Source: Streptomyces sp. yr375
GTDB taxonomy: Bacteria > Actinomycetota > Actinomycetes > Streptomycetales > Streptomycetaceae
Length of the DNA stretch: 64,000 nt
Direction of reading: 5' to 3'
Assembly: GCF_900110755.1 (NCBI RefSeq)
Contig: NZ_FOFF01000007.1
Span: forward strand, 124,001-188,000
The position numbers and the translations under genes were made by a program. The notes below the pieces were generated by a model. The model was not told where the DNA came from. It made no database searches and saw nothing but the letters and a program-made list of their open reading frames with translations. This document shows positions 36,827 to 53,850 of the stretch, in pieces (positions within the stretch are counted from its first letter, which is position 1; every line of letters starts with the position of its first letter).

Positions 36827-38572
36827 GTGCGCAGGGTTCCGCCGGAGATGTTCCGGTTCACCACGGGGGATCGTGCCGATCTCCACGGCGCGGTGCTGCG
36901 GGCGTTCGGCGCGGCCAACGAGCGGCTGGAGACGGCACTCGGGCTCGACGAGGTCCGGTCCCGGCTGCGCACGGTCGGCTGGCTGGACGCGATCACGGAC
37001 GAGGAACTGCACGAGGCGCTCAGAAAACTCCAGCACTGGAACCTGCTGGACGTCGTCCAGAACCACGCGGAGAACTACCGCACAGCCGAGGAGTACGAGC
37101 GCCGCAACCTCCAGTACTCCCTGACCCGCCAGGGCGAGGCCGCCATCGCGGGGGTGGAGCACGCGCTGACGGTGCTCGCGTCGACGGGCGCGCTCCAGAC
37201 CGCCGTACTGGAAGCGATCACCGACCGGCTCGACGAGCTGTACGTCCTGCTGGAGCAGCCCGCGTCGGCGGACCGCCGCATCTTCAGCACCCTCCAGGAA
37301 CTGGAGGGGCACCTCGAAACGCTGCTGGACAACACCAAGGTGTTCAACGGCGAACTGCAACGGCTGCTGCGCGCCGAAGGCACCGACGCCGGGGTCTTCC
37401 GCGAGGTCAAGGCGTCGACGGTGGCGTACCTGCGCGAGTTCCTGGTCAACCTCGACCGGCGCGGGGCCGGGGTCGCCGTCGCGGTGGCCCGGGTGGAGGA
37501 GCGCGGCACCGGTGTGCTGCACGAGCGCGCGCTGCGGGGCGCGGAGCTGCCTCCGTCGGCCGGGGCGGACCCGTCGGCGGCGTGGCTGGAGCGGCGCAGG
37601 GCGCGCTGGGCGGGGCTGCGGGCCTGGTTCCTGCCGGCCGACGGGTCGCCGCCCCGGGTCGAGCAACTGCACGACGTGGCCCGGCGGGCGATCGTCTCGC
37701 TGCTTCAGGTGCTCGACCGGATCACGGAGTCCCGTCGCCGTTCGTCCAGCGCCGTCCAGGACTTCCGGGAACTCGCCCGCTGGTTCGCCGCCGCGCCCAC
37801 GGAGGAGGACCTGCACCGGCTGTGGTCGCTCGCCTTCGGCCTCGGCTCCGCGCGCCACGCCCACCTCGCGCACCCCGATCCCGAGCTGGTCCCCGTCTCC
37901 CGGACCTGGGCCGCCGCACCCCCGGTGGAGGTGTCCGCACTGCTGCGCACCAGCGGCCGTACGGAGCGCTTCACCCGGACCGGCAAGGTGCGGGACGTCT
38001 CCGCGACCCGCGCCGCCCGAGCCGAGCGCGCCCGCCGCGAACGCGCCGAACTCCAGGCGGCCTGGCAGATGCTGGCCACGGACGGTCCCGTACGGCTCTC
38101 CGCCTTCGCCGAACTCGACGCCGAACTCGACCCGGCAGCCTTCGAGCGCCTGTTCGACCTGCTCGGCAGGGCCCTCTCGTCCTGCCCGGACAGCACGGGA
38201 GTACGGCGGGCCGCGAGCGCGGACGGCGCAGTGGAGATCGTCCTCGCGGCCATGGACTCGGCCGAGGCCGACGAGGCCGACGAGGCCGACGACCGGATCG
38301 CCACGCTGCGCACCTCGACGGGGGTGATGACCGGCCCGGACTACGTCGTCCAGATCCGCAACGCGGACGCAGGGATGGATGTGGGGATGGGCGTGGGGGT
38401 GGACATAGGGAGGACGGACGTAGGGGTGGACGTAGGGACAGGGCCGCGCCGCCTGAGCGCGCGGGCGGAGACGACCACTCCCCACCCGTCGACCACCCCG
38501 CACTCGACGACCACTCCCCACCCGTTGACCACCCCGCACCCGTCGACCGCACACGAGGAGGCCGTCGGATGA
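36827..38572 (+). CDS. jetA: Wadjet type III protein JetA (TIGR02677/DUF2397)
   Basis: This 581-residue MukF/kleisin-like subunit has an N-terminal winged-helix/dimerisation part (RFTTGDRADLHGAVLRAFGAANERL, LHEALRKLQHWNLLDVVQNH, EYERRNLQYSLTRQGEAAI) and a long helical middle with FSTLQELEGHLETLLD. The C-terminal winged helix covers about residues 400-500. In Wadjet, JetA bridges the SMC-like JetC heads and binds JetB. The last 70 residues are low complexity (Gly/Val-Asp, then TTTPHPSTTPHS repeats) and look like a local addition. GTG 36827 follows AAGGGGGAGG; ATG 36848 is an alternative. The stop overlaps jetB (ATGA). Confidence 0.93.
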   Translation: MRRVPPEMFRFTTGDRADLHGAVLRAFGAANERLETALGLDEVRSRLRTVGWLDAITDEELHEALRKLQHWNLLDVVQNHAENYRTAEEYERRNLQYSLTRQGEAAIAGVEHALTVLASTGALQTAVLEAITDRLDELYVLLEQPASADRRIFSTLQELEGHLETLLDNTKVFNGELQRLLRAEGTDAGVFREVKASTVAYLREFLVNLDRRGAGVAVAVARVEERGTGVLHERALRGAELPPSAGADPSAAWLERRRARWAGLRAWFLPADGSPPRVEQLHDVARRAIVSLLQVLDRITESRRRSSSAVQDFRELARWFAAAPTEEDLHRLWSLAFGLGSARHAHLAHPDPELVPVSRTWAAAPPVEVSALLRTSGRTERFTRTGKVRDVSATRAARAERARRERAELQAAWQMLATDGPVRLSAFAELDAELDPAAFERLFDLLGRALSSCPDSTGVRRAASADGAVEIVLAAMDSAEADEADEADDRIATLRTSTGVMTGPDYVVQIRNADAGMDVGMGVGVDIGRTDVGVDVGTGPRRLSARAETTTPHPSTTPHSTTTPHPLTTPHPSTAHEEAVG

Positions 38573-39942
38573 GCACGCTCGCCAACCAACTGGTGGTGGT
38601 CGAACGGGAAGAGGTCGCGCGGGGCATCCGGCTGCTGCTCGCCCAGCCGTTGATCACCGAGCGCGGCGACCCCGTGGCCTTCGAGGTGGTCCGGCGTCGC
38701 AAGGAGCCGTTGGCCAAGTGGTTCGACTACACCTGCGGCTGGAGTCTGGTGGTGGAGCCGCGGCGCGGCTACGCCCGGCTGCTCAAGGTCCGCCCGACCG
38801 CCGACGCCTCCCGTCCCGCCCTCCGTCCCCGCGCGGGCCGCGCGCCCTTCGATCGCCGCCGGTACGTGCTGCTGTGCGTCACCGCGGCGGAGCTGACCTC
38901 CGTACCGATGACGACCATCGGCCTGCTCGCCGACCGCGTCGTCCAGGCCATGGCCGCCGATCCGGCGCTCGCCCCGTTCGACACCACCAGCCGCCGCGAG
39001 CGGATGGCCTTCGTCGACGTCCTGAAGCTGCTGGAGTCGTACGGCGTCCTGGCGGTCGTCGACGGCCTGACGGAGTCGTTCGTGGACACGGCGGAGGCGA
39101 AAGTCCTCTACCGGGTGGACGTCACCCTCCTGATGAGGCTGCCCGCGGCCCCCGTCGGGCCGTCACGCCTCGCGCTGCCCGCACAGGAGGTGCCGGCCCG
39201 CTTCGAGGAACTCCTCGCGGAGCTGATGCGCGAGCGCCGCTACGGCACACCGCCGCCCGCCACGCATCCGGCGCAGCCGGAGCATCTGGCAGATGCGGCA
39301 GATGCGGCAGATGCGGCATATGCGGGAGATACGGCGTTTACGGCACATCCGGCGCAACTGGCAGCAGGGGACGAGGCGTTCGTCGTCTCCGACACCCGGC
39401 GCAACCTGTGGCTGCGCCACTCCGTACTGCGCCGCCTCTTCGACGACCCGGTCCTCTACAGGGAGGACCTGACCGACGACGAGCTGGCCTACCTCGCGTC
39501 CCCCACGGGCCGTCAGATCCTGCGGCGCGCGGTGGAGCAGGCCGGACTCGTCCTGGAGGAACGCGCGGAGGGCTATCTCCTCGTCGACCCCGACGCCGTG
39601 GCCACCGACTCCACGTTCCCGGACGACTCCTCGACCGCCCGGGTCGCCGCACTGCTCCTCCTCGAAGGCATCGCCGACACCCCCGGCGGCGCGACCCCCG
39701 AGCAGCTCGCCGAGGCGGCGTCCGCCCTGCTGCGGCGGTTCCCCCGCTGGGCGAAGGCCTACCAGGCGACCGAGGGCGCGCACCGGCTGGCCGACGACGC
39801 CGTGGCCGTACTGCGCGACTTCGGCCTCGCCCGCGCCATCGGCGACCGCGTCGTACCCCGCCCGGCCGCCCACCGGTACCGCGTGGCACACACGAGCACG
39901 ACCACCGCTACCGCCACGACCGAGGAAGGAGGCCCGCTGTGA
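38569..39942 (+). CDS. jetB: Wadjet type III protein JetB (TIGR02678/DUF2398)
   Basis: This 457-residue MukE/KITE-like subunit has family patterns EREEVARGIRLLLAQPLI, FDYTCGWSLVVEPRRGYARL, RRRYVLLCVTAAEL and RHSVLRRLFDDPVLYREDL, then a C-terminal winged helix (GAHRLADDAVAVLRDFGL). In the complex JetB sits on JetA near the JetC heads. A 9-bp repeat adds an Ala-Asp stretch near residues 241-255, in a loop between domains. Both ends overlap neighbours by 4 bp (ATGA with jetA, GTGA with jetC), so the subunits are made in one coupled series. Confidence 0.92.
   Translation: MSTLANQLVVVEREEVARGIRLLLAQPLITERGDPVAFEVVRRRKEPLAKWFDYTCGWSLVVEPRRGYARLLKVRPTADASRPALRPRAGRAPFDRRRYVLLCVTAAELTSVPMTTIGLLADRVVQAMAADPALAPFDTTSRRERMAFVDVLKLLESYGVLAVVDGLTESFVDTAEAKVLYRVDVTLLMRLPAAPVGPSRLALPAQEVPARFEELLAELMRERRYGTPPPATHPAQPEHLADAADAADAAYAGDTAFTAHPAQLAAGDEAFVVSDTRRNLWLRHSVLRRLFDDPVLYREDLTDDELAYLASPTGRQILRRAVEQAGLVLEERAEGYLLVDPDAVATDSTFPDDSSTARVAALLLLEGIADTPGGATPEQLAEAASALLRRFPRWAKAYQATEGAHRLADDAVAVLRDFGLARAIGDRVVPRPAAHRYRVAHTSTTTATATTEEGGPL
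39289..39333 (+). repeat. 9-bp tandem repeat inside jetB
   Basis: Three perfect GCAGATGCG units and two degenerate ones encode (ADA)n between the N- and C-terminal parts of JetB. The frame is kept. Confidence 0.9.
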
Positions 39943-42900
39943 ACGTGACCGAACTGCCGGTACGCGGCACGGACCGGCCGGACGCCGCTCCTCCCACGGC
40001 TCCCACAGACACCACCACCCGCCCCACGGGCGGCACCCCCGAGGCCCGCAACCGGTGGCAGCCCGTCCGCGCCGGGATCCTCAACGTCTGGCGCTACTAC
40101 GACGAGACGTTCACCTTCCACGAGGGACGGCTGCTGCTGCGCGGACCGAACGGCACGGGCAAGTCGAAGGCGCTGGAACTGCTGCTGCCGTTCCTGTTCG
40201 ACGCGAACCTCAGGCCCCACCGCCTCTCCACCTTCGGCGGTTCCGAACGCACCATGCACTGGAACCTCATGGGCGAAGGCGCCACCGGCAAGACCCGCGT
40301 GGGATACGTGTGGCTGGAGTTCGGCCACGCCGACGGCCGCTGGTTCTCCTGCGGCGCCCGGCTCCAGGCCAGCATCCACACCAGCGGCGTCCAGACCGAC
40401 TACTTCACCACCGCCCGCCGCCTCGCCCGCCCCGACGGCGTGTCCCTCGTCAACGAGGCGGGCCAGCCCCTCACCCGGCCCGCGCTCGCGGATGCTCTCG
40501 CCCTGGCGGGCGACGGCGAGATCCACGCCACGGCGGCCGACTACCGGGCCACGATCCGCCGCACCCTCTTCGACGGCCTCGGCGAGCAGCGCTTCGAGGC
40601 GCTGATCACCGCCCTGCTCCAGCTCCGGCAGCCGAAACTCTCCGAGCGGCTCGACCCGTCCCTCCTGTCCACGCTGCTGTCCAAGGCCCTCCCGCCGCTC
40701 GGCGAGAGCGAGATCGGCGAACTCGCCGAGGGCTTCGAGCGGCTCGACCGGCAGCGCGAGGACCTGAAGCGGCTGGACGAGGAGGTCACCGCCGCTGCTG
40801 CCATTGCCGGTCGCCAACGCGGTTACACCCAGCGGGTGTTGCGGTCGGCCGCCGCGCAACTGATCTCCGCGACGACGGACATGGACAACCGCGCCCGGAT
40901 CGCCCGGGAGAGCGCGGAGCAGCACCGGCAGGCCGTGCACGACCAGGAGGCCACCGGGCGGCGCAGGGCGGAGTTGGGCGAGCGCGTCGCGGAACTCGAG
41001 GCCGCCGTCCAGGGGTTGCTGGACAGCGACCTCTACCAGCAGGGCAAGGAGCTGGACCAGCTCCGCCGCCGTACCCAGGACACCGCGCAGGCGGCCGACC
41101 GGCTGCGCGCCACCGCCGACGACCGGCAGCGCCGGGCCCGCGCGGACGAGGAGCAGGCGGCCACCGCCGCCCGGCAGGCCGAGGAGTGCGCCCACCACGC
41201 CCGGGACACCGCCGAGGACGCCGAACGGACCGCCCGCACCGTGGGCATGGAGTCGGTGCACACGGAGATGCGCGCCGCCCTCGCCGACGCGCCCGCGGAC
41301 GCCCCCACCGCCGACGACCCCGCGCGGGAGGCGACCCGGGTCCGGCAGGTCCGCCACCTGCTGCGCGGCGCGGTCAAGGGCCGCCGCGACCAGATGGCCG
41401 CCGTCCGGGAAGCCGTCGAACGCCATGAGCGGGCCGTCGGCGACCGCACCGCCGCCGAAACGCTCCTCGACGGCGCCCGGGACGGCCTCGCCGAGGCCAT
41501 GACCCGGCGCGACGAAGCGGCCCGGGAGTGCGCGCAGGCCCTGCGGGCCCAGGCGGAACAGCTCCGGGAATGGGCCGCCGGATGCGTGGAGCTGCGCATC
41601 GGCGACGTCGAGGAACTGGCCGCCCGAGCCGCCGTCGAGGCGGACGTCCTGGCCGTCGTGGAGCGCGCCGTACGCGCCCTTGACCAGCAGATCACCCAGT
41701 CCGAGACCCGGGTCGAAGCGGCCCGGAAGACCGGCCACGATCAGCGGGAGAGGTTCGTCCGGGCCATCGAGGCACTCACCGCGGAAGCCGACCTTCCGCC
41801 GGTCGCCCCGCCGACCCGTACGACGGACCGTTCGACGATGGAGGGCGCGCCCCTGTGGCGGCTGGTGGCCTTCCGCGACGGCGTTCCCGAGGAGGTCCAG
41901 GCGGGCGTCGAGGCGGCGCTCGAGGCGTCGGGGCTGCTCGACGCGTGGCTGAGCCCCGAGGACACCATCGACCTGGCCGGCCACGACACCTTCGCGGCGC
42001 CCGGCTGGGCGACCCCCGCGCCGGGGCCGTCCCTGCGGGAGGTCCTGCGCCCCGAGAAGGACATCCCGGTCGCCGCCGACCGCGTGGACCGCCTCCTCGC
42101 GGGCATCGCCTACGGGGAACACCTCCCGCACTGGCACACCGCCGCCGTCGCCGCGGACGGTAGCTGGCGACTGGCCGCGGCCATCGGCACCTGGAGCAAG
42201 GCGGCCCCCGCCCACATCGGCGCCCACGCCCGTGACCAGGCAAGACAGCGCCGTATCACGGACCTGACCGACCGGCTCACCGCGCTGAACACCCACATCG
42301 CGGCGCTCGACACCCGCCTCGGCGCGCTGCGCGAGAGCCGCTCCCGCCTCGACGCCGACCTCGCCGCCCGCCCCCGGCACCGGGAACTCGACGAAACACG
42401 CCGCCGGTGGGACCGCGCGGAGGAGGCGGTCGGCGTCCGCGACGACGCCGTCCGCCGGGCGGTCAAGGTCCTCGACGGACGCGAGGCCGACGTCAGCCGC
42501 TGCCTGCGCACCCTGGGCCGACTGTCCTCCGAACACGCCCTGCCCACCGAGCGCGGCCGGCTGAACGAACTGTCCGCCGCCGTCGACGCGTTCGCCGACA
42601 CCGCCGACGCCTGGGCCGACGCCCACCTGCACTGGTCCACCGCCCTCGGCCGGTCCGCCGCCGCCCGACACCAGGCCGAACGCTCCACGGAGGCCGCCCG
42701 CGAGGCCCAGGCCGAAGCCGACCGCGCCGACGCCGAGGCGCGGGCGCTCGCCGCCACCCTCCAGGCCGCGGACAGCACCGTCGGCGAGGACTTCCGCCAG
42801 ACAGCCGTCCGCATCGGCGAGTTGAGACAGGACGTCCGCCGCAGCCGTGAGCAGATCAGCGCGAGCGACGGCGAACTGGGCCGCCTGCAACGCCGTATCG

Positions 42901-44150
42901 GCTCCCTGGAAGCGACCATGGCCATGGACGCCCTGCGCCGCGACGAGGCGACCGCCGCCCGCGACGCCTCGGCCCTCCGCTTCCGGCACCTGTGCCTGCT
43001 CGGCCTGCCCCAGGACGCGGGCGTCCCCCCGGACCGCACCGCGTCGGGCCTGACCGCGTCGGACGGCACCCGCGCCACCCTGGAAGCGGCCCGCGAGATC
43101 GCCGCCGAGTGGCCCGGCCTCGCCCACGAACCACGCAACCTCGGGGACGCCGTCCAGCGCCTCTCCGAGGCCGTCCACCAGGCCCGTCAGGTCCTCGGCC
43201 GGCGCGCCGACCTCGACCTGGAGGCCGACGACGACGTCCAGATCTTCACCGCCACCATGGACGGCGCCCGCATCGGCGCGACGGGCCTGCTCCACACCCT
43301 CACCGCCGAACGGGACGGCAGCCGCGACGACATCACCGTCGCCGAGCGCCGCCTCTTCGACCAGACCCTCACCGGCGACACCCGCCGCCACCTCGCCGCC
43401 CGCATCCGCCAGGCCAACGAACTCGTCGACCGCATGAACGGCCACCTGGAGCGCGTCCGCACCGCGTCGAAGGTCTCCGTCCAACTGGTGTGGCGCATCC
43501 ACCCCGACCTCCCGGCCGGCACCCAGACCGCCCGCACCCTCCTCCTCAAGGAACCGAAGAACGTCACCGACGCCGACCGCGAGGCCCTGCACGACTTCTT
43601 CCGGGCCCGCATCGAGGAGGCCAAGGCCAGGAACACGGCGGCCACCTGGGAGGAACAGCTCGCCGAAGTGCTCGACTACACGGCCTGGCACCAGTTCGTC
43701 GTCCGCCTCGACCGCGCGAACGGCGCCGGCTGGCAGGTCCTCACCAAAAAACTGCACGGCGCGCTCTCCGGCGGCGAAAAGGCCATCGCCCTGCACCTGC
43801 CCCTCTTCGCCGCGGTCGCCGCGCACTACGAGGCCGTCCCCGAAGCACCTCGCCCGATCCTCCTCGACGAGGTCTTCGTCGGCGTCGACACCACCAACCG
43901 CGGCCAGATCTTCGCCCTCCTCACCGCCCTAGACCTCGACTTGATGCTCACCTCAGACCACGAGTGGTGCCACTACCGCGAACTCCCCGGCATCGCCATC
44001 CACCAACTCATCACAGGAACAGACGGCGACGACGCGGTCACCAGCGCCCGGTTCGTATGGACGGGGGCGGGGATGCGGGCGGATGAGGGGGATGGGGGAG
44101 ATGCGGGGGGCGCCGGGGAAGTGGGAGATGAGAGGGACGGAGGGGACTGA
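39939..44150 (+). CDS. jetC: Wadjet type III protein JetC, SMC/MukB-like ATPase (TIGR02680)
   Basis: This 1403-residue ATPase has Walker A GPNGTGKS at residues 69-76 near the N-terminus. Long Arg/Glu/Ala-rich coiled coils (about 260-560 and 780-1200) flank a hinge-like globular part. The C-terminal head carries signature LSGGEKAIALHLPLFAAV and Walker B RPILLDEVFVGVD. JetC is the motor that extrudes DNA loops, and Wadjet uses it to test whether DNA is a small circle. GTG 39939 has GGAGG six bases upstream and overlaps jetB. The tail after TGTDGDDAV is Gly/Asp-rich low complexity continuing into a purine-rich tract. Confidence 0.94.
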   Translation: MNVTELPVRGTDRPDAAPPTAPTDTTTRPTGGTPEARNRWQPVRAGILNVWRYYDETFTFHEGRLLLRGPNGTGKSKALELLLPFLFDANLRPHRLSTFGGSERTMHWNLMGEGATGKTRVGYVWLEFGHADGRWFSCGARLQASIHTSGVQTDYFTTARRLARPDGVSLVNEAGQPLTRPALADALALAGDGEIHATAADYRATIRRTLFDGLGEQRFEALITALLQLRQPKLSERLDPSLLSTLLSKALPPLGESEIGELAEGFERLDRQREDLKRLDEEVTAAAAIAGRQRGYTQRVLRSAAAQLISATTDMDNRARIARESAEQHRQAVHDQEATGRRRAELGERVAELEAAVQGLLDSDLYQQGKELDQLRRRTQDTAQAADRLRATADDRQRRARADEEQAATAARQAEECAHHARDTAEDAERTARTVGMESVHTEMRAALADAPADAPTADDPAREATRVRQVRHLLRGAVKGRRDQMAAVREAVERHERAVGDRTAAETLLDGARDGLAEAMTRRDEAARECAQALRAQAEQLREWAAGCVELRIGDVEELAARAAVEADVLAVVERAVRALDQQITQSETRVEAARKTGHDQRERFVRAIEALTAEADLPPVAPPTRTTDRSTMEGAPLWRLVAFRDGVPEEVQAGVEAALEASGLLDAWLSPEDTIDLAGHDTFAAPGWATPAPGPSLREVLRPEKDIPVAADRVDRLLAGIAYGEHLPHWHTAAVAADGSWRLAAAIGTWSKAAPAHIGAHARDQARQRRITDLTDRLTALNTHIAALDTRLGALRESRSRLDADLAARPRHRELDETRRRWDRAEEAVGVRDDAVRRAVKVLDGREADVSRCLRTLGRLSSEHALPTERGRLNELSAAVDAFADTADAWADAHLHWSTALGRSAAARHQAERSTEAAREAQAEADRADAEARALAATLQAADSTVGEDFRQTAVRIGELRQDVRRSREQISASDGELGRLQRRIGSLEATMAMDALRRDEATAARDASALRFRHLCLLGLPQDAGVPPDRTASGLTASDGTRATLEAAREIAAEWPGLAHEPRNLGDAVQRLSEAVHQARQVLGRRADLDLEADDDVQIFTATMDGARIGATGLLHTLTAERDGSRDDITVAERRLFDQTLTGDTRRHLAARIRQANELVDRMNGHLERVRTASKVSVQLVWRIHPDLPAGTQTARTLLLKEPKNVTDADREALHDFFRARIEEAKARNTAATWEEQLAEVLDYTAWHQFVVRLDRANGAGWQVLTKKLHGALSGGEKAIALHLPLFAAVAAHYEAVPEAPRPILLDEVFVGVDTTNRGQIFALLTALDLDLMLTSDHEWCHYRELPGIAIHQLITGTDGDDAVTSARFVWTGAGMRADEGDGGDAGGAGEVGDERDGGD

Positions 44151-44236
44151 GGAGACGACGGAAACGAGGGAGACGACGGAAACGAGGGCGATTAAGGGAA
44201 ACGAGGGAGATGAGGGAGATAAGGGAGGCGGCGGAG
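44070..44236 (+). repeat. Purine-rich degenerate repeat tract, jetC end and jetC-jetD gap
   Basis: The coding strand is almost entirely A and G here, with repeated GAGGGAGA, GACGACGGAAACGAGGG and GGGAGATAAGGGAGG units. It encodes the acidic Gly-Asp tail of JetC, then fills the 86-bp gap before jetD and ends in jetD's own ribosome site. Confidence 0.8.
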
Positions 44237-45544
44237 ATGACCGGGACAGGAAATCCAGGACGTGAGCGCCCCACAACTCCCCCTCCGCCTCCCCCTTCTG
44301 CCTCCCCCCTCCCCCTCCCGGCTCCCCCACACCTCACCACCCCCCACCTGCGCCCGCTCTGGCAGGCGGTGCACGACCGCATCTCCTCCGGCCGCCCCGT
44401 CACCAGCGTGCGCCTGGGCCCGCTGGACGACGACGAACGGGAGGCCCTGGCCGACCTCCTCGGCATGGACCGCCTGCCGGACCAGCGCCCCACCGTCCGC
44501 CTGACCAGGCTGGCGGACGCCGTGGCCGAGGCCGGCGGCGGCACCGTACGCGACCTGGTCACCCAGATCATCGGCCCACTCGACGACCGAGCGGCCGAAC
44601 GCCGTCGCCGCGACGACGAACGCACGGCACTGTGGTCCTGGCTGACGACCCACGACACGATCCGAACCCAGCCCGTCCTCACGGACTGGACGACGTACTG
44701 CCGCACCCAGGGCCTGCTGGCCGGCTCCACCACCCGCACCCGCGACCTCCTCTCCGCCGCCCTCACCGTGCTCGCCGCGCTGCCCGCCGAGGGCGAGCCG
44801 CTACCGGTGTTCGCCGCGCGGGTCCGGCACGGCGACCCGCACGCCCTGGACGACGGCACCCGCCTGTCCGCCCTCGTCCTACGGGCCCTGTCCACGCTCT
44901 ACGACACACCCGTGCCCGACAGTTCCCAAGCGCGGCGCGAGTTGTGGTCCCGGGCCGGTGTCGCCGACGACGACCTGTCCACGACGGTCCTGGCCGCCGG
45001 ACTCCGCCTGACCGGCGAGGGCACGCTGAGCCGCCTGGCCCGCATCTGCGCCGAGGCGGGCCAAGCGGTCTCGCTCACCCTCGCCCAGTTGAGATCACCG
45101 GGCGAGTACGGCTTCCCGGCCCGACCCGTCCACATCACGGAGAACCCGAGCGTCCTCGCCCTGGCCCTGCGCCGCTTCGGCGCCGACTGCCCACCCCTCG
45201 TCTGCACCTCGGGCTGGCCGAACGGCGCGGCCGTCCGCCTCCTCCACCTCCTGGCAGCAGAGGGCGCGACCCTCCACTACCACGGCGACTTCGACGGCGA
45301 GGGCATACGCATCGCAGCCCACGTCATGCACAAAACCCCCGCAGTCCCCTGGCGCATGACCACCCACGACTACCTGACAGCCCTCGCCACCACCCCCCAA
45401 GCCCCCTCCCCAGGCCGCCTCACCGAGGCCCCGTGGGACCCGACCCTCACCCCAACCATGGCGACCCACGACAAAGCAGTCATGGAGGAATCGATGACGG
45501 ACACCCTCCTGCAAGACCTGTCACGAGAACGCACCCACCAATGA
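44237..45544 (+). CDS. jetD: Wadjet type III nuclease JetD (TIGR02679/DUF2399, Toprim-like)
   Basis: This 435-residue protein has a proline-rich N-terminal tail, a DUF3323-like N-terminal domain, and a C-terminal Toprim-like domain (DUF2399) with VHITENPSVLALAL supplying the catalytic Glu and LHYHGDFDGEGIRIAAHV the DxD metal pair. JetD is the topoVI-A/Spo11-like subunit that cuts plasmid DNA after extrusion stalls. The ATG at 44237 has GGGAGG eight bases upstream; ATG 44210 is in frame but would translate repeat sequence. It completes a four-gene system with all key residues present. Confidence 0.92.
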   Translation: MTGTGNPGRERPTTPPPPPPSASPLPLPAPPHLTTPHLRPLWQAVHDRISSGRPVTSVRLGPLDDDEREALADLLGMDRLPDQRPTVRLTRLADAVAEAGGGTVRDLVTQIIGPLDDRAAERRRRDDERTALWSWLTTHDTIRTQPVLTDWTTYCRTQGLLAGSTTRTRDLLSAALTVLAALPAEGEPLPVFAARVRHGDPHALDDGTRLSALVLRALSTLYDTPVPDSSQARRELWSRAGVADDDLSTTVLAAGLRLTGEGTLSRLARICAEAGQAVSLTLAQLRSPGEYGFPARPVHITENPSVLALALRRFGADCPPLVCTSGWPNGAAVRLLHLLAAEGATLHYHGDFDGEGIRIAAHVMHKTPAVPWRMTTHDYLTALATTPQAPSPGRLTEAPWDPTLTPTMATHDKAVMEESMTDTLLQDLSRERTHQ

Positions 45545-45825: not shown

Positions 45826-45905
45826 TGTCTGAAGGACGTCGACGGGATCGATGCCGATGAGTGGACACCCCGGGAACTCCGGCACAGCCTCCTGTCACGA
45901 AGTTA
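45826..45905 (+). pseudogene. Integrase C-terminal fragment from an earlier element
   Basis: The residues LKDVDGIDADEWTPRELRHS closely match residues 313-332 of the intact integrase encoded at 59029-60198, and the DNA is also similar. Homology stops where the left attachment repeat begins, so the remainder of the gene was deleted. It marks a former element of the same family at the same tRNA. Confidence 0.8.
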
Positions 45906-46013
45906 GACACGCACCAACGCCAGAGGGCCCTTACCTACCCGGTAAGGGCCCTCTGAACTGCTGTCTAGCTGTCGGGGTGGCGGGATTTGAACCCACGACC
46001 TCTTCGTCCCGAA
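45894..46013. repeat. Left attachment site: 120-bp direct repeat (att)
   Basis: It matches 60229-60348 at 116 of 120 positions. It contains a copy of the tRNA terminator hairpin and, from 45972, the 3' 42 bp of tRNA-Pro. The tRNA copy is incomplete because the 5' half is absent after 46013. A 17-bp piece of its outer end (GTCACGCAGTTAGACAC) occurs again at 46112-46128 just inside the element. Confidence 0.93.
45922..45954 (-). terminator. Duplicate tRNA-Pro terminator hairpin
   Basis: Perfect 14-bp arms AGAGGGCCCTTACC and GGTAAGGGCCCTCT flank loop TACCC. The stem is the same as at the intact tRNA; only the loop differs. Confidence 0.8.
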
Positions 46014-46053
46014 GCAACTTGGGCGAGGGCTCTGCCTTGGGCTGCGACGCGGT

Positions 46054-46503
46054 TCACCTGTGGTGATGGTCCGTAGACGTCCGCGCTCGTTCGCTGCTGT
46101 GCGTGGGTGTTGTCACGCAGTTAGACACCCACGCTTGCTGACCACAGCTCAGCAAGCGCAGGTCGTTCGAGACCATGACCTGAGCGAGGCGTCCGGCGAT
46201 GGCCACGACTTCGGGCCAGGCTGATGCCTGAAGGTACTCAGCGTCGGTGTCGTGGGGTGCCTCCGCGGCGGCAGCGTTGAGCGCGACACCGAGGGCCCGC
46301 ATAAGGGTTACCTCTTCCTCGGTTCTCAAGCTGATGCCGAGGTACCGCTCGGGCTCATCGGCGTCACAGAAGTCATCGAAGAGCGTGTGGAAGACGTGGT
46401 CGATGTTCTCGAACTCCGAAGGGTCGAGCCACACGTCCCGCTGCCATGGTGGATTGGCCAGAGCCAAGACCACAGGTACGACGTGGACACGGTGATTCGC
46501 CAT
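46054..46503 (-). CDS. SCO4402-like hypothetical protein
   Basis: This protein of about 149 residues has the acidic pattern WLDPSEFENIDHVFHTLFDD, then FCDADEPERYLGISLRTEEEV, known from small Streptomyces proteins of the SCO4402 type; their function is unknown. The ATG at 46503 follows GGAG; the frame upstream to 46608 looks non-coding. The last 25 codons run through the repeated 17-bp att-end sequence and look unlike the rest, so the original 3' end has probably been replaced at the junction. Confidence 0.65.
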   Translation of the reverse strand: MANHRVHVVPVVLALANPPWQRDVWLDPSEFENIDHVFHTLFDDFCDADEPERYLGISLRTEEEVTLMRALGVALNAAAAEAPHDTDAEYLQASAWPEVVAIAGRLAQVMVSNDLRLLSCGQQAWVSNCVTTPTHSSERARTSTDHHHR

Positions 46504-47219
46504 GACTTGGGCTTCTCCGCTCACGAGCCCGAGCCTAGCGACCACACCCTCAGAAGGCGCTGGTGTTTTCAGGAGCACCACTTTAGGAGAGAGGCGGGGG
46601 CATCGCACCTGTGACCTGGGGCTTCGATGACTCGTGAGATGCCCAGCAACTCAACCGCCAGACACCCTCGTTGACCGTGGCTGACCGCTGCATCTGGCAC
46701 GACAGTGGCACGGACCTCAGCCGACGACAGCCAGCCACGACGGCGGGTGCGACGGCCGACCAGGCGCGCGTATGCCTCGCTGCACCCCACCGGCCTCAGC
46801 CACGCTACTGGCTTGCGCCGTCGACCAGAGCAAGCCGCGACGGCCGGCCCCGTGACGACGGCACGTGAGCCCACAGCTTGGGAAGCTGCGATCATTCAGA
46901 TACGACTCGGAACGATCACTCGGCAGACGTCCGCCACACGTCCAGCCGGACCCTTACCTCGTGCTTGTGGGTGTGCCAGAAGACGCCTCGACGGAGGCCC
47001 CGAGGGCGGGCAGATCCATCCCCAGCGGCATGGCCGTGATCTCGGCCAGCGCTACGACGTCAGACACACCGCCTACACGTATGAAGACGCCAAGGGCTGG
47101 CGGCCGATGACCAGCGAAACTGCACCGGCCCTGGAGGGCTCCTACGTCGGCTCGCCAAGTCCATCTGTCAGCGGCGCCTCGTACCATCCAACTGACGGCG
47201 GCAACCTGGGAGGGGCAAA
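46504..47219. other. Gap without a confident gene at the left end of the AICE
   Basis: Several overlapping frames exist, but none has a ribosome site, codon bias and protein-like sequence together. Short stretches such as YLVLVGVPEDASTEAPRAG (+ strand, near 46957) could be relics. The ribosome site and promoter of the gene at 47220 lie at its right end. Confidence 0.55.
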
Positions 47220-48203
47220 GTGGCCGAGTCGGCTGAGCACGCTTTTCTATCCGATGCAGTTCTGCAAATTCTTGAGAATACGTCAGAGTCTCGCCTTTAT
47301 GCGTACAAAGAGGCGGACCGTAAACGTTTTGATTTCGCTTGCGATCTCGCCACCAATTGGAAGAGGGCTGTTTCGGGGCAGACGCTCTGGAAACATAACG
47401 AGGGTATCGATAAAGACATCAGGATGCTGCTTTCTGAAGCAGCATCAGACGTCCTCGTCTATGTTGCCCGCACTACCATGAAGAATAAGGCGGTGCTGTA
47501 CGAGGCTATCTCCGACTACAAAAAAGCCGGGCTGGCAGACAGGCTTGACCGGCTGCGCGTATTCTGGGTTCCAGAAGACTTTGACGCCGACTCGGAGAGT
47601 CATAGGAGTCTAGTTTACACAGAACTCGAAAACTCGTTGTCTCGTGATCTCCTGCTTGCAGTTGTTCTCGGCGGCATCACTGAGCGTGATGTCGCTTCCT
47701 TTGCGACGTGGAGCGGAATGTGTGGACTCAGTCTCGCAGTCTTGGCGCAAGTCGAAGCATCTGGCTTTGGTAACTACACGCAGCTCGGAAAGCAGATGGG
47801 TGTCGGGGTCGCTCCGGTAAAGGAGAGGATTATCCGTCTGAACCTTACGGGATTCATCGTCCGTAGCCCGGATCCTCGAAAATCGGGAACCATTTATGAA
47901 GTGTCGCCCAAGGGGTACGCCCTCATGGATCTTTGTGGAAGACTAGCTGCCGAGCGAGACAAAGGTGGCCACGTGGACTCTGGATTGAGGCATGTGTGCT
48001 CACTGCTGGGCATCGATACGAGGAGAGTTGACCTCTGGCCTTTTATGCCCGGTTATGATGCGTCACGCGATGGGGGCCTAAGTCCTCATCCTCACCGCGA
48101 TACCTCCTTGCGGCTGGCCAAAGAAATTAACGACGCACTCGCTAGATGGGGTGTGTCACTGCCAGACCCTCACTACGAAATTCCCGACCTGAATTTTTCG
48201 TAA
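47220..48203 (+). CDS. Unrecognised protein with a central winged-helix domain (AICE cargo)
   Basis: This 327-residue soluble protein starts at GTG 47220 with GGGAGG six bases upstream. The N-terminal 150 residues (RLYAYKEADRKRFDFACDLA, DKDIRMLLSEAASDVLVYVA, RTTMKNKAVLYEAISDYKK) form an alpha/beta domain I do not recognise; the acidic and lysine residues around DVLVYVARTTMKNK vaguely recall restriction-endonuclease folds. Residues about 175-240 are a MarR-like winged helix (YTQLGKQMGVGVAPVKERI, then wing and SPKGYALMDL). The C-terminal 90 residues are unassigned. Codons are much richer in A and T than in neighbours, a sign of transfer. It is convergent with the HNH gene. It may be a DNA-sensing or nuclease component of a defence pair; that is a guess. 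Confidence 0.7.
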   Translation: MAESAEHAFLSDAVLQILENTSESRLYAYKEADRKRFDFACDLATNWKRAVSGQTLWKHNEGIDKDIRMLLSEAASDVLVYVARTTMKNKAVLYEAISDYKKAGLADRLDRLRVFWVPEDFDADSESHRSLVYTELENSLSRDLLLAVVLGGITERDVASFATWSGMCGLSLAVLAQVEASGFGNYTQLGKQMGVGVAPVKERIIRLNLTGFIVRSPDPRKSGTIYEVSPKGYALMDLCGRLAAERDKGGHVDSGLRHVCSLLGIDTRRVDLWPFMPGYDASRDGGLSPHPHRDTSLRLAKEINDALARWGVSLPDPHYEIPDLNFS

Positions 48204-48489
48204 GGTCGGCGGAGTCTCAATGACCGAGTCAAGGCACTTCCGTCGGCCTATCCCCTCGATGCGAAATACGGGCGGGGCGGTCGCTGAGGTCTGCCGGGCT
48301 GGTCGTCCGGATGCCTGCGGTCGGTGATGACTGGGTGCGGTCGCGGTGGTTGCTGTGCTTCGCTGCTGTACAGCAGAACAGTTTCTCGCCCGTCACCTGC
48401 GGGCACCGATTGCCAGCGTTGGTCGACCTCGGACGGCTCAGCCCCGGCACATTGCCGTCAGTTTCGTCGACCCACCCTGACGACCTGGA
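48204..48489. other. Gap between the two cargo genes
   Basis: No gene is evident. A perfect 14-bp palindrome CTGCTGTACAGCAG lies at 48363-48376. The base composition is GC-rich here, unlike the two genes it separates. Confidence 0.55.
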
Positions 48490-49380
48490 TCAATACCATC
48501 GACGATACCGATTACTAGGGTCCTCAACTTTGTCGGATTTTCTGGAATTGCAGTTCTCGCAGAGCAACTGGAGATTGGTGACGTCATTCAAACCGCCTCG
48601 CGCAAGCGGCACCATATGGTCATAATTACCAACGTTCAATGTGTCAATGAGCCCGGACAAGTCTGTTCCGCAAGCCGTACACCTACCGCGATCGCGGTAA
48701 AAGACGGCCCTGCGTGCCCACATCGGGGGGCGAACTCGCTTCAGTTCCCCGTCACGCACAAAAAGGTCCGACAATGATGCTTCGTCCGCGTCAAAACCGT
48801 CACTAGCGACCTCCTCAACATACCCGGAAAGAAATTGGTTCAAATTAGCCAAGGCTCGCCGGTTCAGAAACATCACATAAAAGACTTCGTCGGTGACACG
48901 GGACATGAGGTCCTCGTAAGCCTGAGTCCACCGTAGATTCAAAAGGTAGTCGTAGCACGCATTTACGACACAATGCGGATCCTTGGGTTCTGATGAGCTA
49001 CCTTCACTGCCGGGGATCCCCTCAGGGTCAGGCTCGTCAGGAATGAAGAACAAGGGCTCGTCGATGATTCCATATTGCAACATCGCGGCGTCAACAGGAA
49101 GAATCCAATCCGGATAGATGGGGTCAGGGCCGAATGGCACTCGTGTTGGGCCGTCAGTATCATTCATCAGGATTTCATCAGCAACGAAGCGGATGAATTT
49201 ATGAAGGGCGGAATCCTTCTGCCAATGTGGAAGGAAATCGTAAATTCCGTCGTTTACCGTCAGTCCTTCCAGGTGGCGCAAATGTGAGAACGGGTCGCGC
49301 ATGATGGTGTCCACTGCATTGGCAATCCGGTACGTACGGAAGTACTCATGCGTCAACCACTCGTTCTTCTTTGCCCTCAC
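48490..49380 (-). CDS. HNH endonuclease-domain protein (AICE cargo)
   Basis: This 296-residue protein has a C-terminal HNH nuclease domain (about 225-290): RGRCTACGTDLSG with the first CxxC, YDHMVPLARGGLNDVTNLQL with the catalytic DH and Asn, and LCENCNSRKSDK with the second CxxC. The N-terminal 220 residues are acidic and helical, with FRTYRIANAVDTIMRDPFSH and a Pro/Asp-rich insert, and match no family I know. GTG 49380 has GGGGAG upstream. Its composition is A+T-rich like the gene at 47220, so both probably arrived together. HNH proteins of this size act as restriction nucleases, effectors or homing enzymes; an effector role is inferred. Confidence 0.78.
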   Translation of the reverse strand: MRAKKNEWLTHEYFRTYRIANAVDTIMRDPFSHLRHLEGLTVNDGIYDFLPHWQKDSALHKFIRFVADEILMNDTDGPTRVPFGPDPIYPDWILPVDAAMLQYGIIDEPLFFIPDEPDPEGIPGSEGSSSEPKDPHCVVNACYDYLLNLRWTQAYEDLMSRVTDEVFYVMFLNRRALANLNQFLSGYVEEVASDGFDADEASLSDLFVRDGELKRVRPPMWARRAVFYRDRGRCTACGTDLSGLIDTLNVGNYDHMVPLARGGLNDVTNLQLLCENCNSRKSDKVEDPSNRYRRWY

Positions 49381-49492
49381 ACGCCCTCCCCTGGGCTTGT
49401 TTACCGTCGATCCAATCTTGCCTGACGGTTGGGACTATGCATGCGTTTTCGGCGAACCTGAGGTCGGTGGAGCGGCTTTGGGGTGGCGCTGC

Positions 49493-49601
49493 TTTGGCGC
49501 GAGTGATCATGGCCCCGTAAGCTTCCGGCGCGTCGGGCAGTCTGTGGACCTGCCCGGTAAAGCACGACGTTGGGGCCATGATCTGCGAGGCTCGCGCCAA
49601 A
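49493..49601. repeat. 109-bp nested inverted repeat (cruciform or structured RNA)
   Basis: The outer arms are TTTGGCGCGAG (49493-49503) and CTCGCGCCAAA (49591-49601). Second arms of 12 bp are GATCATGGCCCC (49505-49516) and GGGGCCATGATC (49572-49583), and an inner hairpin is CGGGCAG/CTGCCCG (49534-49556). The gap 49381-49804 holds no gene; GC-rich CCGGCC repeats follow near 49700-49760. It may be a replication or transfer site or a regulatory RNA. Confidence 0.75.
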
Positions 49602-49804
49602 GTGGCTCCGTAAAGCCGTGGAGCTGACCGCCCCAGCCACGACGTACCCCTTCTCTGGCATCAGGCGGGCTGCATGCTTTGAGCGCGGCACGGGCGCCGG
49701 CCGGGCTGGAGCGGGACGAAGGCAGGAGCGCAGGCCCGGCCGGGGGCCGGGCCGCGCGCGGGGAGCGTAGCGAGCCGCCTTGAACCCGTAAAGAATGTTG
49801 TCAC

Positions 49805-50899
49805 TCAGGAGGCGGCTGGGATGCGCCAGAGTGGGGCCGTGTACTGCTCCGGGCGGCTCTTGACGAGCAATCGGCGCAGGTCATCGCGCTGTGAGCCGTC
49901 GAGGTTCAGGGCCTCGGTGAGGTGGCGGAACGTCGTGTGCGTGACTCCACGGCTTCGGGCTTCTGCCTCGAACTGAGCGAGCTGGCGTAGTACTGACTCA
50001 GCATCGAGCTTCGTCGGCCGCTGCTCCTTGAGCCAGAGGGCCTTGTTGCGCTCGTAGTCGATTTCGGAGAAGCCGCAGATCTCGCGGCTCAGTGCTTCCA
50101 CCTGGCCCAGGGTGGTTGTCGACATGATGGCGCGGGCCAGCTCGTTGCGGCTCAACGCGTCGTCCAGGTCGACCGCGTGGAGTGTCGGGCCTTCGTCTGT
50201 CAGGGGGATGGGAAGGCCGGCGTCTCGGATCTCGCATGTGCCGCGTACGCCGCGGGCTGTTGCCGTGAGCATGCCGGTTGCTTCCGAGGGGTGCCAGTCC
50301 AGGACCGGACCGACCGGCTCGGCGTCCTTCGCCGTGAAGGTGTGGACGAGGGGGCCGAGCATGCTGCGCAGGTCCTCGGGCGACAGTTCGCCGTCCAGGC
50401 CGGGGCCTGCGACCAACAGGCGGATTGGGGCGTTCACTTGGCCGCACGCTGCCAGTGTTAGGGAGTCCGCGAGCGGGCTCTTCAGCGTCGGTTCGTCGCC
50501 TCGGGCCAGCACGTCGCCGCCGACGTCCAGGAGATCGATTGAGGTCGGCTGTAGGTGAGTGACCAGGTCTTCGAGCTGGCGCGTGACGCCCTCGGCGCCG
50601 TGGCTCGGGTCGATCAGCGCGAAGGCGTGTGGGAGCTCTGCCGCTAGGCGGGGGAGTGTGGAGCCCGCCGGTGCGATGGGGCGGGCCTTCGCCGGCACCT
50701 TCCGTACGGTCGGGGTGAGTGGTTCGAGGCCGGTGAAGTCGTCGGGTCCTCGGGGGCCCGGTACGGGGTCGATCAGCAAGCGGTCCCACGCGTACGTGAG
50801 GATCACCGCCTGGTCCTCGTCGCCGTACAGGGCGGCGTGAAGCATTGCGGCGGCGACTGCGTCGCCCCCTCCTCCTGCTGCGACGATCAACCGCGTCAT
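49805..50899 (-). CDS. DUF1152 domain-containing protein
   Basis: This 364-residue protein begins with a Rossmann-like glycine loop (MTRLIVAAGGGGDAVAAAML) and has VDLLDVGGDVLARGDEP-type acidic strands, both features of DUF1152. The family is frequent on Streptomyces mobile elements and has no known reaction; the first motif suggests nucleotide or dinucleotide binding. The ATG at 50899 is chosen over an upstream GTG at 50932. It is divergent from the first GntR gene across an operator-bearing 81-bp gap, so that repressor may also silence it. Confidence 0.8.
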   Translation of the reverse strand: MTRLIVAAGGGGDAVAAAMLHAALYGDEDQAVILTYAWDRLLIDPVPGPRGPDDFTGLEPLTPTVRKVPAKARPIAPAGSTLPRLAAELPHAFALIDPSHGAEGVTRQLEDLVTHLQPTSIDLLDVGGDVLARGDEPTLKSPLADSLTLAACGQVNAPIRLLVAGPGLDGELSPEDLRSMLGPLVHTFTAKDAEPVGPVLDWHPSEATGMLTATARGVRGTCEIRDAGLPIPLTDEGPTLHAVDLDDALSRNELARAIMSTTTLGQVEALSREICGFSEIDYERNKALWLKEQRPTKLDAESVLRQLAQFEAEARSRGVTHTTFRHLTEALNLDGSQRDDLRRLLVKSRPEQYTAPLWRIPAAS

Positions 50900-50937
50900 G
50901 GGCCCAAGACTACGGGGTTGCCCATTGACCACTCACC

Positions 50938-50966
50938 CTATAGTGGCCAGAGGCTATAGCCACTTG
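50938..50966. promoter_or_regulatory. Operator of the first AICE GntR repressor
   Basis: CTATAGTGGCC is followed by palindromic GGCTATAGCC and CACTTG. The half-site AGTGGCTA recurs twice at 51758-51798 downstream of the gene, which points to autoregulation. Confidence 0.6.
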
Positions 50967-50980
50967 GACGAGGAGGGGAC

Positions 50981-51721
50981 ATGCCTCAGATCGAGGAGAC
51001 GCAGCCGAAGTATCTCCAGATCGCTCACTTCATTCGCGATCAGATCCTGCGCGGTGATCTGCGGCCGGGGGACGAGGTTCCATCGGAGCGGCAGTTGGCG
51101 GCTGACTGGAAGGTGTCCCGGCCTACGGCGGCGCGGTCTTTGGAGGCGCTGAGCAATCAGGGGCTCGTCGAGAAGCGGCAGGGGTCCGGGACGTACGTGC
51201 GGAGCCTTGAAGTGAACAGGCGGGCACGGGAGTTGTACGGGCGGGCTCGGCAGACCGGGAAGATCTACACGCCCGGCGAGTACGCGGTCATCACCTCCGC
51301 CGGGTGGCTGGATGCGCCGGATCATGTCGCTGAGGCCTTGGGGCTGGTGAAGGACCGGCGGGCCGTGCATCGCCGGCGGGTGACCAACAACCAGGACGGG
51401 CCCATCACGCTGTCTACCTCGTGGTTCGCGCCGGAGATCGGGCAGCGGGCGCCCAAGCTCCTGGAGCCTGAGCGGATCCAGGAGGGCACCCTGATGTACG
51501 TCGAGAACATGACGGGGCGGCAGGGGAGTTACGCGGAAGACCGTATGTGCGCTCGGCAGGCTACCGACGAGGAAGCGGCTGACCTCCAGCTTGCGGCCGG
51601 GTCTGCTGTGCTGATCGTGCATCACGTCGTCTTCGACCTCCAGGACCGGCCGTTGGAGTTCGCCGAAGCCACCTACCCGCCGAACCGTTGGGCGTTCGAG
51701 CAGGGGTATCCGCTCACCTGA
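50981..51721 (+). CDS. GntR-family repressor with UTRA domain (KorSA-like)
   Basis: This 246-residue protein has a GntR winged helix at residues 8-75 (YLQIAHFIRDQILRGDLRPG, DEVPSERQLAADWKVSRPTA) and a UTRA domain (about 95-240) ending in EFAEATYPPNRWAFEQGYPL. KorSA of pSAM2, a protein of this type, keeps the element quiescent by repressing its activator and transfer genes. The ATG has GAGGAGGGGA upstream. Repeated AGTGGCTA sites lie on both sides of the gene. Confidence 0.88.
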   Translation: MPQIEETQPKYLQIAHFIRDQILRGDLRPGDEVPSERQLAADWKVSRPTAARSLEALSNQGLVEKRQGSGTYVRSLEVNRRARELYGRARQTGKIYTPGEYAVITSAGWLDAPDHVAEALGLVKDRRAVHRRRVTNNQDGPITLSTSWFAPEIGQRAPKLLEPERIQEGTLMYVENMTGRQGSYAEDRMCARQATDEEAADLQLAAGSAVLIVHHVVFDLQDRPLEFAEATYPPNRWAFEQGYPLT

Positions 51722-51757
51722 TGAGTCCTCACTTCAAGGAAGTGCTTGCGCACTACG

Positions 51758-51798
51758 AGTGGCTAATGCCACTATCCAGTAAGTGGCTAAGGCCACTT
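51758..51798. promoter_or_regulatory. Two further AGTGGCTA palindromes
   Basis: AGTGGC-TAAT-GCCACT (51758-51773) and AAGTGGC-TAAG-GCCACTT (51781-51798, 7-bp core arms) stand in tandem 20 bp before the start of the small zinc-finger gene. Centre spacing is 24 bp. The same half-site precedes the GntR gene, so the repressor probably also controls the genes downstream. Confidence 0.65.
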
Positions 51799-51817
51799 GA
51801 TCGGAAGGGGGCCCGGA

Positions 51818-51991
51818 GTGACGAGTCGGCGGCAGGACAAGGGAGCGCACTTACCTTGCAGGAGTTGTCGGGGGCGCGGCTGGAAGCGTGTCGGCTCCCG
51901 TACGGCTCTCGCGCTTGCTGCTGCCGCTGACCGCACCCGTGCCACATCGAAGCGGCGCTGCCTCGACTGCGACGGCAGCGGCAAGGAGTGA
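51818..51991 (+). CDS. Small zinc-finger-like protein
   Basis: This 57-residue basic protein has two cysteine pairs in DnaJ-like knuckles, PCRSCRGRGWK near the N-terminus and RCLDCDGSGKE at the C-terminus, separated by an Arg/Ala helix. GTG 51818 follows AAGGGGG. Such proteins are common in Streptomyces mobile elements beside the GntR repressor; no function is established. It lies just 7 bp before the ATP-binding protein gene, so the two are likely co-transcribed. Confidence 0.65.
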   Translation: MTSRRQDKGAHLPCRSCRGRGWKRVGSRTALALAAAADRTRATSKRRCLDCDGSGKE

Positions 51992-51997
51992 GCGCGC

Positions 51998-52438
51998 ATG
52001 GTGGCTTACACGATCGACCGCTATCCCTCTGAGGACTCACCGCGGCTCGGGGCCATGACCCTGCATCCGGCTCCGGAGTCGGTTCCCAGGGCCCGGCGCT
52101 GGTTCCGGAAGTTCATCGCCCCGTACAACCCGGCCTGTTCGGTCGAGGACTGCGCGCTGATGATCTCGGAGCTGGTGACCAACGCCATCCGCTACGGCCA
52201 GGCTGACGAACCGTGGCTGGTGCGGGTGGAGTGGTTTCGGGATGACACCTCGCTCCGCATCGAGGTGCATAACCCCGGCTTCCCGGCCAATGTGCGGCTT
52301 CGGCGGCCTGACGCCAATGACGCGCACGGGCGGGGGCTGCTGCTGGTCGACTCGATCGCCGAGTCCTGGCATTCCGGGCCCAGTCGCTTCGGCGGAACGG
52401 TGGTCGCCTTTGTCGTCGCCGATGCCTGGCCGTCGTGA
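51998..52438 (+). CDS. HATPase-fold ATP-binding protein (RsbW/anti-sigma-kinase-like)
   Basis: This 146-residue single-domain GHKL protein has N box LMISELVTNAIRYG (about 54-67), G1-like EVHNPGFPANV and G2-like HGRGLLLVDSIAESW. Streptomyces encodes many such stand-alone ATPases, some acting as anti-sigma factors. On this element it may link transfer to host physiology, which is inference. The ATG at 51998 is used. Confidence 0.85.
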   Translation: MVAYTIDRYPSEDSPRLGAMTLHPAPESVPRARRWFRKFIAPYNPACSVEDCALMISELVTNAIRYGQADEPWLVRVEWFRDDTSLRIEVHNPGFPANVRLRRPDANDAHGRGLLLVDSIAESWHSGPSRFGGTVVAFVVADAWPS

Positions 52439-52484
52439 GGGCAATACCCTCCGTTGGTACTGCGCCGACGGATTCGTCGCTAGT

Positions 52485-52507
52485 CTGGTTGACCAGTTGA
52501 CTTGGCC
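52485..52507. promoter_or_regulatory. Operator of the second AICE GntR repressor
   Basis: CTGGTTGACCAG (5-bp arms) is followed by AGTTGACTTGG, whose complement carries the AAGTCAACT core that recurs at 53753-53814. It lies 24 bp before the GntR start. Confidence 0.55.
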
Positions 52508-52530
52508 AATCTCGACAGGCGGCGGCGTTC

Positions 52531-53259: not shown

Positions 53260-53264
53260 CAGCT

Positions 53265-53684: not shown

Positions 53685-53752
53685 GGCGCGCCCTCCTCTT
53701 GCTGCTGGGTTCATGATGCGCTCGCCCTCGTGGGCTGTCTCGTTGACCATGG

Positions 53753-53814: not shown

Positions 53815-53850
53815 GCTGGCAGGTTGATCGACTCAGAAGGAGAAATCTCT

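What the first reader, a model, noticed from the sequence alone, without database searches (positions are those of the whole stretch)
36827..45544. Complete Wadjet type III anti-plasmid system
Four coupled genes encode DUF2397, DUF2398, an SMC-like ATPase with Walker A, signature and Walker B, and a Toprim-like nuclease with TENPS and DFDGEG motifs. This is the known type III arrangement (also called EptABCD in mycobacteria). All key residues are intact, so it is likely functional, with unusual low-complexity additions in three of four subunits.
Basis: partly seen in the sequence, partly recalled or inferred. Interest (0 to 1): 0.72.

Follow-up and report, generated by a model that had tools for sequence, protein, structure and literature searches.

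The report
Type II Wadjet anti-plasmid operon
This is an intact-looking four-gene bacterial system of a known kind (Wadjet type II, not type III as first read) that probably detects and cuts small circular plasmids, and it sits in a chromosomal hotspot where mobile elements insert beside a proline tRNA gene.

Summary
The four coupled genes are real and complete: DUF2397 (36827-38572), DUF2398 (38569-39942), a TIGR02680 SMC-like ATPase (39939-44150) and a DUF3323/DUF2399 Toprim nuclease (44210-45544). All score far above curated cut-offs, and the key ATPase and Toprim residues are present. The type is misnamed. PADLOC calls all four JetA2/B2/C2/D2, and the only clear PDB matches for A, B and C are chains of 9qe0, which I identify with the Neobacillus vireti type II Wadjet. 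EptABCD of Mycobacterium smegmatis is also a wrong alias: it belongs with MksBEFG, a type I system. About 38 actinobacterial loci, mostly Streptomyces, carry orthologous genes, usually in the same order. The low-complexity additions occur in all four proteins, are nearly private to this genome, mostly lack the host's codon signature and lie outside the conserved domains: probably recent repeat expansions. The operon lies between a conserved WD40/STAND gene and tRNA-Pro(CGG). A 14.3-kb pSAM2-like integrative element sits between operon and tRNA, and a relative without the operon has only 2.8 kb there. Its nearest relative (Actinacidiphila) has its operon beside the same tRNA. The genome encodes a second, divergent type II system. 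Ordinary but well-resolved.

The parts
36827..38572 (+). jetA (type II), DUF2397/TIGR02677 kleisin-like subunit, 581 aa
   Evidence: PF09660 E 3.5e-143, TIGR02677 520 bits vs cut-off 166, PADLOC JetA2 E 5e-261, 9qe0 chain E (JetA) E 6.5e-24
38378..38527 (+). JetA aa 518-567: private repeat-rich C-terminal extension outside the conserved domain
   Evidence: tandem repeats of 18/36 nt and 27 nt; columns occupied in under 25% of 38 orthologues; domain match ends at aa 507-515
38569..39942 (+). jetB (type II), DUF2398/TIGR02678 KITE-like subunit, 457 aa
   Evidence: PF09661 E 5.5e-103, TIGR02678 400 bits vs 125, PADLOC JetB2 E 1e-132; 9qe0 chain D (JetB) E 1.5e-4
39250..39339 (+). JetB aa 228-257: insertion of 9-nt repeats (GGCAGATGC) in a length-variable loop
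   Evidence: the surrounding stretch 39250-39354 has GC3 0.57 against 0.92-0.93 in flanking JetB
39939..44150 (+). jetC (type II), TIGR02680 SMC-like ATPase, 1403 aa from GTG
   Evidence: TIGR02680 1208 bits vs cut-off 463, PADLOC JetC2 E 0, 9qe0 chain A (JetC) E 1.4e-74
40143..40166 (+). Walker A GPNGTGKS
   Evidence: core G, N, G, G, K invariant in 41 JetC
43764..43784 (+). ABC signature LSGGEKA
   Evidence: S, second G and E invariant in 41 JetC
43854..43877 (+). Walker B PILLDEVF with catalytic Glu
   Evidence: D 40/41, E 38/41; PF13558 SbcC_Walker_B E 3.9e-21
44082..44235 (+). purine-rich 9/18-nt repeats spanning the jetC 3' end and the start of jetD
   Evidence: TRF; C tail absent in relatives; C-tail GC3 0.64
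44210..45544 (+). jetD (type II), DUF3323+DUF2399/TIGR02679 TopoVI-like Toprim nuclease, 444 aa from ATG 44210 (ATG 44237 also possible)
   Evidence: PF09664 E 7.5e-50, TIGR02679 396 bits vs 196, PADLOC JetD2 E 9e-143; predicted fold matches TopoVI-A, MksG and JetD
44210..44311 (+). JetD aa 1-34: private N-terminal extension, mostly low model confidence
   Evidence: pLDDT 38-46 over aa 1-20, 65-76 to aa 40
45140..45142 (+). Toprim metal-ligand Glu311 (TENPS)
   Evidence: invariant in 45 JetD and in alignment A1
45287..45295 (+). Toprim D-F-D 360-362 (GDFDGEG)
   Evidence: invariant in 45 JetD and in alignment A1
45829..45896 (.). remnant of an integrase 3' end, 84% like 59965-60032
   Evidence: the repeat finder
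45894..46013 (.). outer 120-bp attachment-site repeat (tRNA-Pro 3' end copy)
   Evidence: 97% identical to 60229-60348
46014..60228 (.). pSAM2-like AICE: GntR regulator, TraB-like FtsK, DUF2637, RepSA, HTH (xis-like), tyrosine integrase
   Evidence: Pfam hits, direct repeats
60306..60380 (-). intact tRNA-Pro (CGG), integration target
   Evidence: ARAGORN

Best explanation
A complete type II Wadjet (JetABCD) operon, acquired into a tRNA-Pro integration hotspot of a Streptomyces-like chromosome. JetC (SMC ATPase dimer), JetA (kleisin) and JetB (KITE) would form a motor that extrudes DNA loops. On small circular DNA the motor reels in the whole circle and the converging geometry licenses the JetD Toprim dimer to make a double-strand break, while the chromosome is spared. 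Shown here: gene content, order, family and type, conserved catalytic residues, the TopoVI-like fold of the JetD model, and the hotspot location. Inferred from studied type I and type II systems: loop extrusion, circle sensing, cleavage and anti-plasmid activity. The low-complexity segments are most likely neutral repeat expansions at tolerant positions.
For: Family and type assignment; A, B and C match chains of solved structure 9qe0, taken as the N. vireti type II complex whose purified form cuts circular DNA (PMC12647877); invariant catalytic residues; JetD fold: 1d3y TopoVI-A Z 15.1, C. glutamicum MksG 8b7f Z 13.7, P. aeruginosa JetD 7til Z 11.5; conserved ABCD order in most of 38 loci; relative without the operon at this site, G066/L135; sister operon L036 at the same tRNA.
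Against: No activity was measured. The private extensions could impair assembly or expression, and the JetD start codon is uncertain inside a repeat. The closest orthologues are only about 72% identical over the aligned core, so purifying selection in this lineage was not tested directly.
Confidence: 0.9

Rival explanations
1. It is a type III Wadjet system.
For: Four genes with an SMC and a Toprim nuclease fit the general plan of all Wadjet types.
Against: PADLOC assigns all four to the type 2 models (JetA2/B2/C2/D2) with E-values from 1e-132 to 0; the few other Jet models hit were type 1 and weak. A, B and C match 9qe0, taken as the type II complex.
Confidence: 0.03
2. The operon is intact in sequence but impaired or silent: repeat expansions in all four proteins and around the jetD start mark a decaying system.
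For: Four private repeat-rich segments, several with lost codon signature; orthologous operons in S. scabiei and S. stelliscabiei have lost jetD, so decay happens.
Against: No stop or frameshift, full-length domain matches, all catalytic residues kept, GC3 0.90-0.93 in the cores. Expansions sit at ends or in a variable loop and relatives vary in length at the same places.
Confidence: 0.12
3. The complex acts mainly in chromosome organisation (MukBEF-like) rather than plasmid defence.
For: JetABC resembles the MukBEF class of condensin (PMC9252829).
Against: A Toprim nuclease subunit is present, which MukBEF lacks; patchy distribution (30 of 101 sampled genomes over the TIGR02679 cut-off) and location in an integration hotspot.
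Confidence: 0.04

Closest known systems
Type II Wadjet JetABCD of Neobacillus vireti (taken as PDB 9qe0/9qe1; Roisne-Hamelin, Liu and Gruber 2025, cited in PMC12647877)
   Same: Same families for A, B and C by sequence; SMC size (1403 vs 1371 aa); JetD assigned to the type II model by PADLOC.
   Different: Low sequence identity and actinobacterial codon use; private low-complexity segments in all four subunits. JetD itself was not compared with the N. vireti protein.
Streptomyces/Kitasatospora/Actinacidiphila type II Wadjet operons (L033-L061, L065-L068, L070)
   Same: In most, the same four genes in the same order; 53-78% identity per subunit in the best segment.
   Different: They mostly lack the expansions of JetA 518-567, JetB 228-257, the JetC tail and JetD 1-34; only L036 lies beside tRNA-Pro among the loci scanned; L059 and L065 lack jetD, and L054 and L056 have broken jetC.
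MksBEFG / EptABCD (C. glutamicum, M. smegmatis), type I
   Same: SMC motor plus TopoVI-like Toprim nuclease; JetD model aligns with C. glutamicum MksG (8b7f).
   Different: Different families (MksG-type JetD is PF09983, found in the C. glutamicum control and absent from this genome).

Membership tests
Wadjet type II | JetA of DUF2397/TIGR02677 type | tested here: met
Wadjet type II | JetB of DUF2398/TIGR02678 type | tested here: met
Wadjet type II | JetC of TIGR02680 type with Walker A, signature, Walker B | tested here: met
Wadjet type II | JetD of DUF2399/TIGR02679 type with Toprim E and DxD | tested here: met
Wadjet type II | four genes contiguous and on the same strand | tested here: met
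   order kept in most relatives
Wadjet type II | cleaves or restricts small circular plasmids | not testable with these tools
   needs an experiment
Wadjet type III | best profile matches to type III subunit models | tested here: not met
   best matches are the type 2 models for all four; that PADLOC also holds type III models is from memory
Wadjet type I / MksBEFG / EptABCD | JetD of PF09983 (JetD_C) type | tested here: not met
   JetD matches DUF3323/DUF2399; no PF09983 match anywhere in the genome, control C. glutamicum positive

The most novel reading that the evidence does not exclude
The repeat tracts in all four subunits, above all the one spanning the jetC end and jetD start, work as a slippage-prone switch that tunes or phase-varies the nuclease, so that the host can tolerate its own plasmid-forming integrative element next door.
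Probability: 0.04. Interest if true: 0.6.

Novelty: new member of a known kind. Interest (0 to 1): 0.22.

Why it matters
Wadjet is common in Actinobacteria, but most mechanistic work is on type I. This locus gives a tractable type II case with a second divergent type II copy in the same genome, a RepSA-type AICE 350 bp away whose excised circle would be a natural candidate substrate, and a related genome without the operon at the site. It also corrects the type label and the EptABCD alias, which would otherwise propagate.

Tried and rejected
Type III label: rejected by PADLOC and PDB matches. JetD against PDB by sequence: no meaningful hit, solved by fold comparison instead. Wadjet as cargo of the present AICE: rejected, it lies outside the outer att repeat. 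An att copy left of the operon: none found with up to 2 mismatches, so the operon cannot be shown to be one discrete element. Hotspot as a dedicated defence island: not supported, ten proteins taken from the flanks of the same tRNA in relatives gave no convincing defence hits. Genus and relatives searches with JetC failed and were replaced by family and JetA searches. Panas 2014 and Doron 2018 could not be read: the ids tried are not held. dN/dS was not done: relatives are too distant for reliable dS at about 92% GC3.

Full report
What is there. The window holds four coupled genes on the plus strand at the stated coordinates. jetA 36827-38572 (581 aa) overlaps jetB 38569-39942 (457 aa) by 4 bp. 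jetB overlaps jetC, which starts at GTG 39939 and ends at 44150 (1403 aa). jetD starts at ATG 44210, or possibly ATG 44237, and ends at 45544. Residue numbers given below for JetC count from the codon at 39942, one less than from the GTG.

Families. Pfam and NCBIfam return PF09660/TIGR02677, PF09661/TIGR02678, TIGR02680 with an SbcC-type Walker B, and PF11796+PF09664/TIGR02679, all far over the curated cut-offs. PADLOC returns JetA2, JetB2, JetC2 and JetD2. In the PDB the only clear matches by sequence for A, B and C are the JetA, JetB and JetC chains of 9qe0. I identify 9qe0 with the type II Wadjet of Neobacillus vireti: PMC12647877 describes that complex as type II, cites its 2025 structure paper, and reports that it cleaves circular DNA. 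The accession itself is not named in that text, so the link is an inference from the chain names and the type assignment.

Type. The system is therefore type II. The EptABCD alias is also wrong in type: EptC is described as an MksB homologue, and the M. smegmatis operon is drawn beside the C. glutamicum MksBEFG, which is called a type I system (PMC10123090; PMC10586767). The nuclease family of that kind, PF09983, is found in C. glutamicum and nowhere in this genome.

Catalytic parts. Across 41 JetC sequences the Walker A core, the signature S-x-G-E and the Walker B D-E are conserved. Across 45 JetD sequences the Toprim Glu (E311 here) and both aspartates of DFD (D360, D362) are invariant. The corresponding metal ligands of C. 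glutamicum MksG, E236 and D279, are needed for cleavage (PMC10123090); the residue equivalence is inferred from motif and fold. The AlphaFold model of JetD (mean pLDDT 89.6) matches TopoVI-A (Z 15.1, rmsd 4.8, 236 residues), C. glutamicum MksG (Z 13.7, rmsd 5.9, 264) and P. aeruginosa JetD (Z 11.5, rmsd 11.8, 268). The rmsd values are high, so this supports the fold, not details.

Low-complexity additions. They occur in all four proteins: JetA 518-567, JetB 228-257, JetC 1386-1402 and JetD 1-34 are columns filled in fewer than a quarter of the orthologues. They coincide with tandem repeats of 9, 18, 27 and 36 nt. GC3 falls to 0.57-0.64 in the JetB insert, the JetC tail and the JetD N-terminus, against 0.90-0.93 in the cores; in the JetA tail it is 0.86. 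The start of JetD has low model confidence. Relatives also vary in length at the JetA-JetB and JetC-JetD junctions. The simplest reading is recent, probably neutral, in-frame repeat expansion at tolerant positions. Function was not tested.

Distribution. One scan returned 50 loci that encode a relative of JetA, about 38 of them close, mostly Streptomyces with Kitasatospora, Actinacidiphila, Nocardia, Amycolatopsis and Actinopolyspora. Gene order ABCD is usual; in two Nocardia loci jetD precedes jetA. In 101 sampled genomes of the window's genus, 30 exceed the TIGR02679 cut-off. The window's own genome has a second complete type II set at about 32-35% identity (L083). In that copy JetC reads GSGKT and LSGGEQ with an LDEAF Walker B, and JetD keeps CENP and DFD.

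Location. Downstream lies a 14.3-kb element bounded by 120-bp direct repeats that include the 3' end of tRNA-Pro(CGG). It encodes a GntR regulator, an FtsK/TraB-like translocase, DUF2637, a pSAM2-type RepSA initiator, an HTH protein and a tyrosine integrase. This is the att-tra-rep-int-att plan of actinomycete integrative and conjugative elements (PMC3218068). A 68-bp remnant, 84% like the 3' part of its integrase gene, lies just outside the outer repeat (45829-45896), which suggests an older, decayed element at the same site. The Wadjet operon is outside both.

The site without the operon. In G066 (L135) the chromosome is colinear with window 17237-36434, interrupted by gaps, and then reaches tRNA-Pro after about 2.8 kb, where the window has about 24 kb. 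That 2.8-kb stretch in G066 contains another copy of the tRNA 3' end. Other genomes carry different material between the same backbone and the tRNA. The probe covering tRNA-Pro and the genes on its other side matches in all 101 genomes sampled, in most of them over the metallophosphatase and YqeY genes. In the nearest relative by sequence, Actinacidiphila acididurans (L036, 72% identity over the aligned core, grouped with the window at support 0.94), the operon also lies beside tRNA-Pro, with a tRNA-end remnant about 190 bp after jetD. So the operon sits in a tRNA-Pro integration hotspot. Whether it arrived with an earlier element is plausible but not shown, since no att copy was found on its left.

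How it most likely works. By analogy with studied type I and II systems: JetABC forms an SMC motor that extrudes DNA, completes extrusion on small circles, and activates the JetD dimer to cut; large linear DNA is spared. This step is inferred from the literature. A Streptomyces chromosome is linear, so the main natural targets would be circular plasmids and excised AICE circles. The neighbouring AICE is a candidate substrate, but nothing here tests that.

Verdict. A well-supported new member of a known kind. The useful additions are the corrected type, the explanation of the low-complexity parts, the second copy and the hotspot context.

Noticed in passing
window 45894-60348: Complete-looking 14.3-kb pSAM2-like AICE integrated in tRNA-Pro(CGG), with 120-bp att repeats and low-GC cargo (46-50 kb, about 59-60% GC) that includes an HNH endonuclease and an unknown gene at 47220-48203.
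   Followed up: partly
window 45829-45896: Remnant of a related integrase 3' end just outside the outer att repeat, suggesting a previous element at the same site.
   Followed up: partly
L083 4002-12483 (own genome, contig C36): A second, divergent complete type II Wadjet operon in the same genome.
   Followed up: partly
L065 after 17273 and L059 after 16988: S. scabiei and S. stelliscabiei keep jetABC but have unrelated genes where jetD should be; only a distant JetD (34-35%) is found elsewhere in each genome.
   Followed up: partly
L063, L064: Nocardia operons have jetD in front of jetA (order DABC).
   Followed up: no
L054, L056: jetC reading frame is broken or split in two Streptomyces orthologue loci; assembly error or real decay not distinguished.
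   Followed up: no
window 32229-36332: WD40-repeat protein with an nSTAND1 NTPase domain next to the operon; conserved in place in G066 and so probably part of the backbone.
   Followed up: partly
window 62964-63066: 14-bp tandem repeat array (7.4 copies, 92% matches) downstream of the YqeY gene.
   Followed up: no
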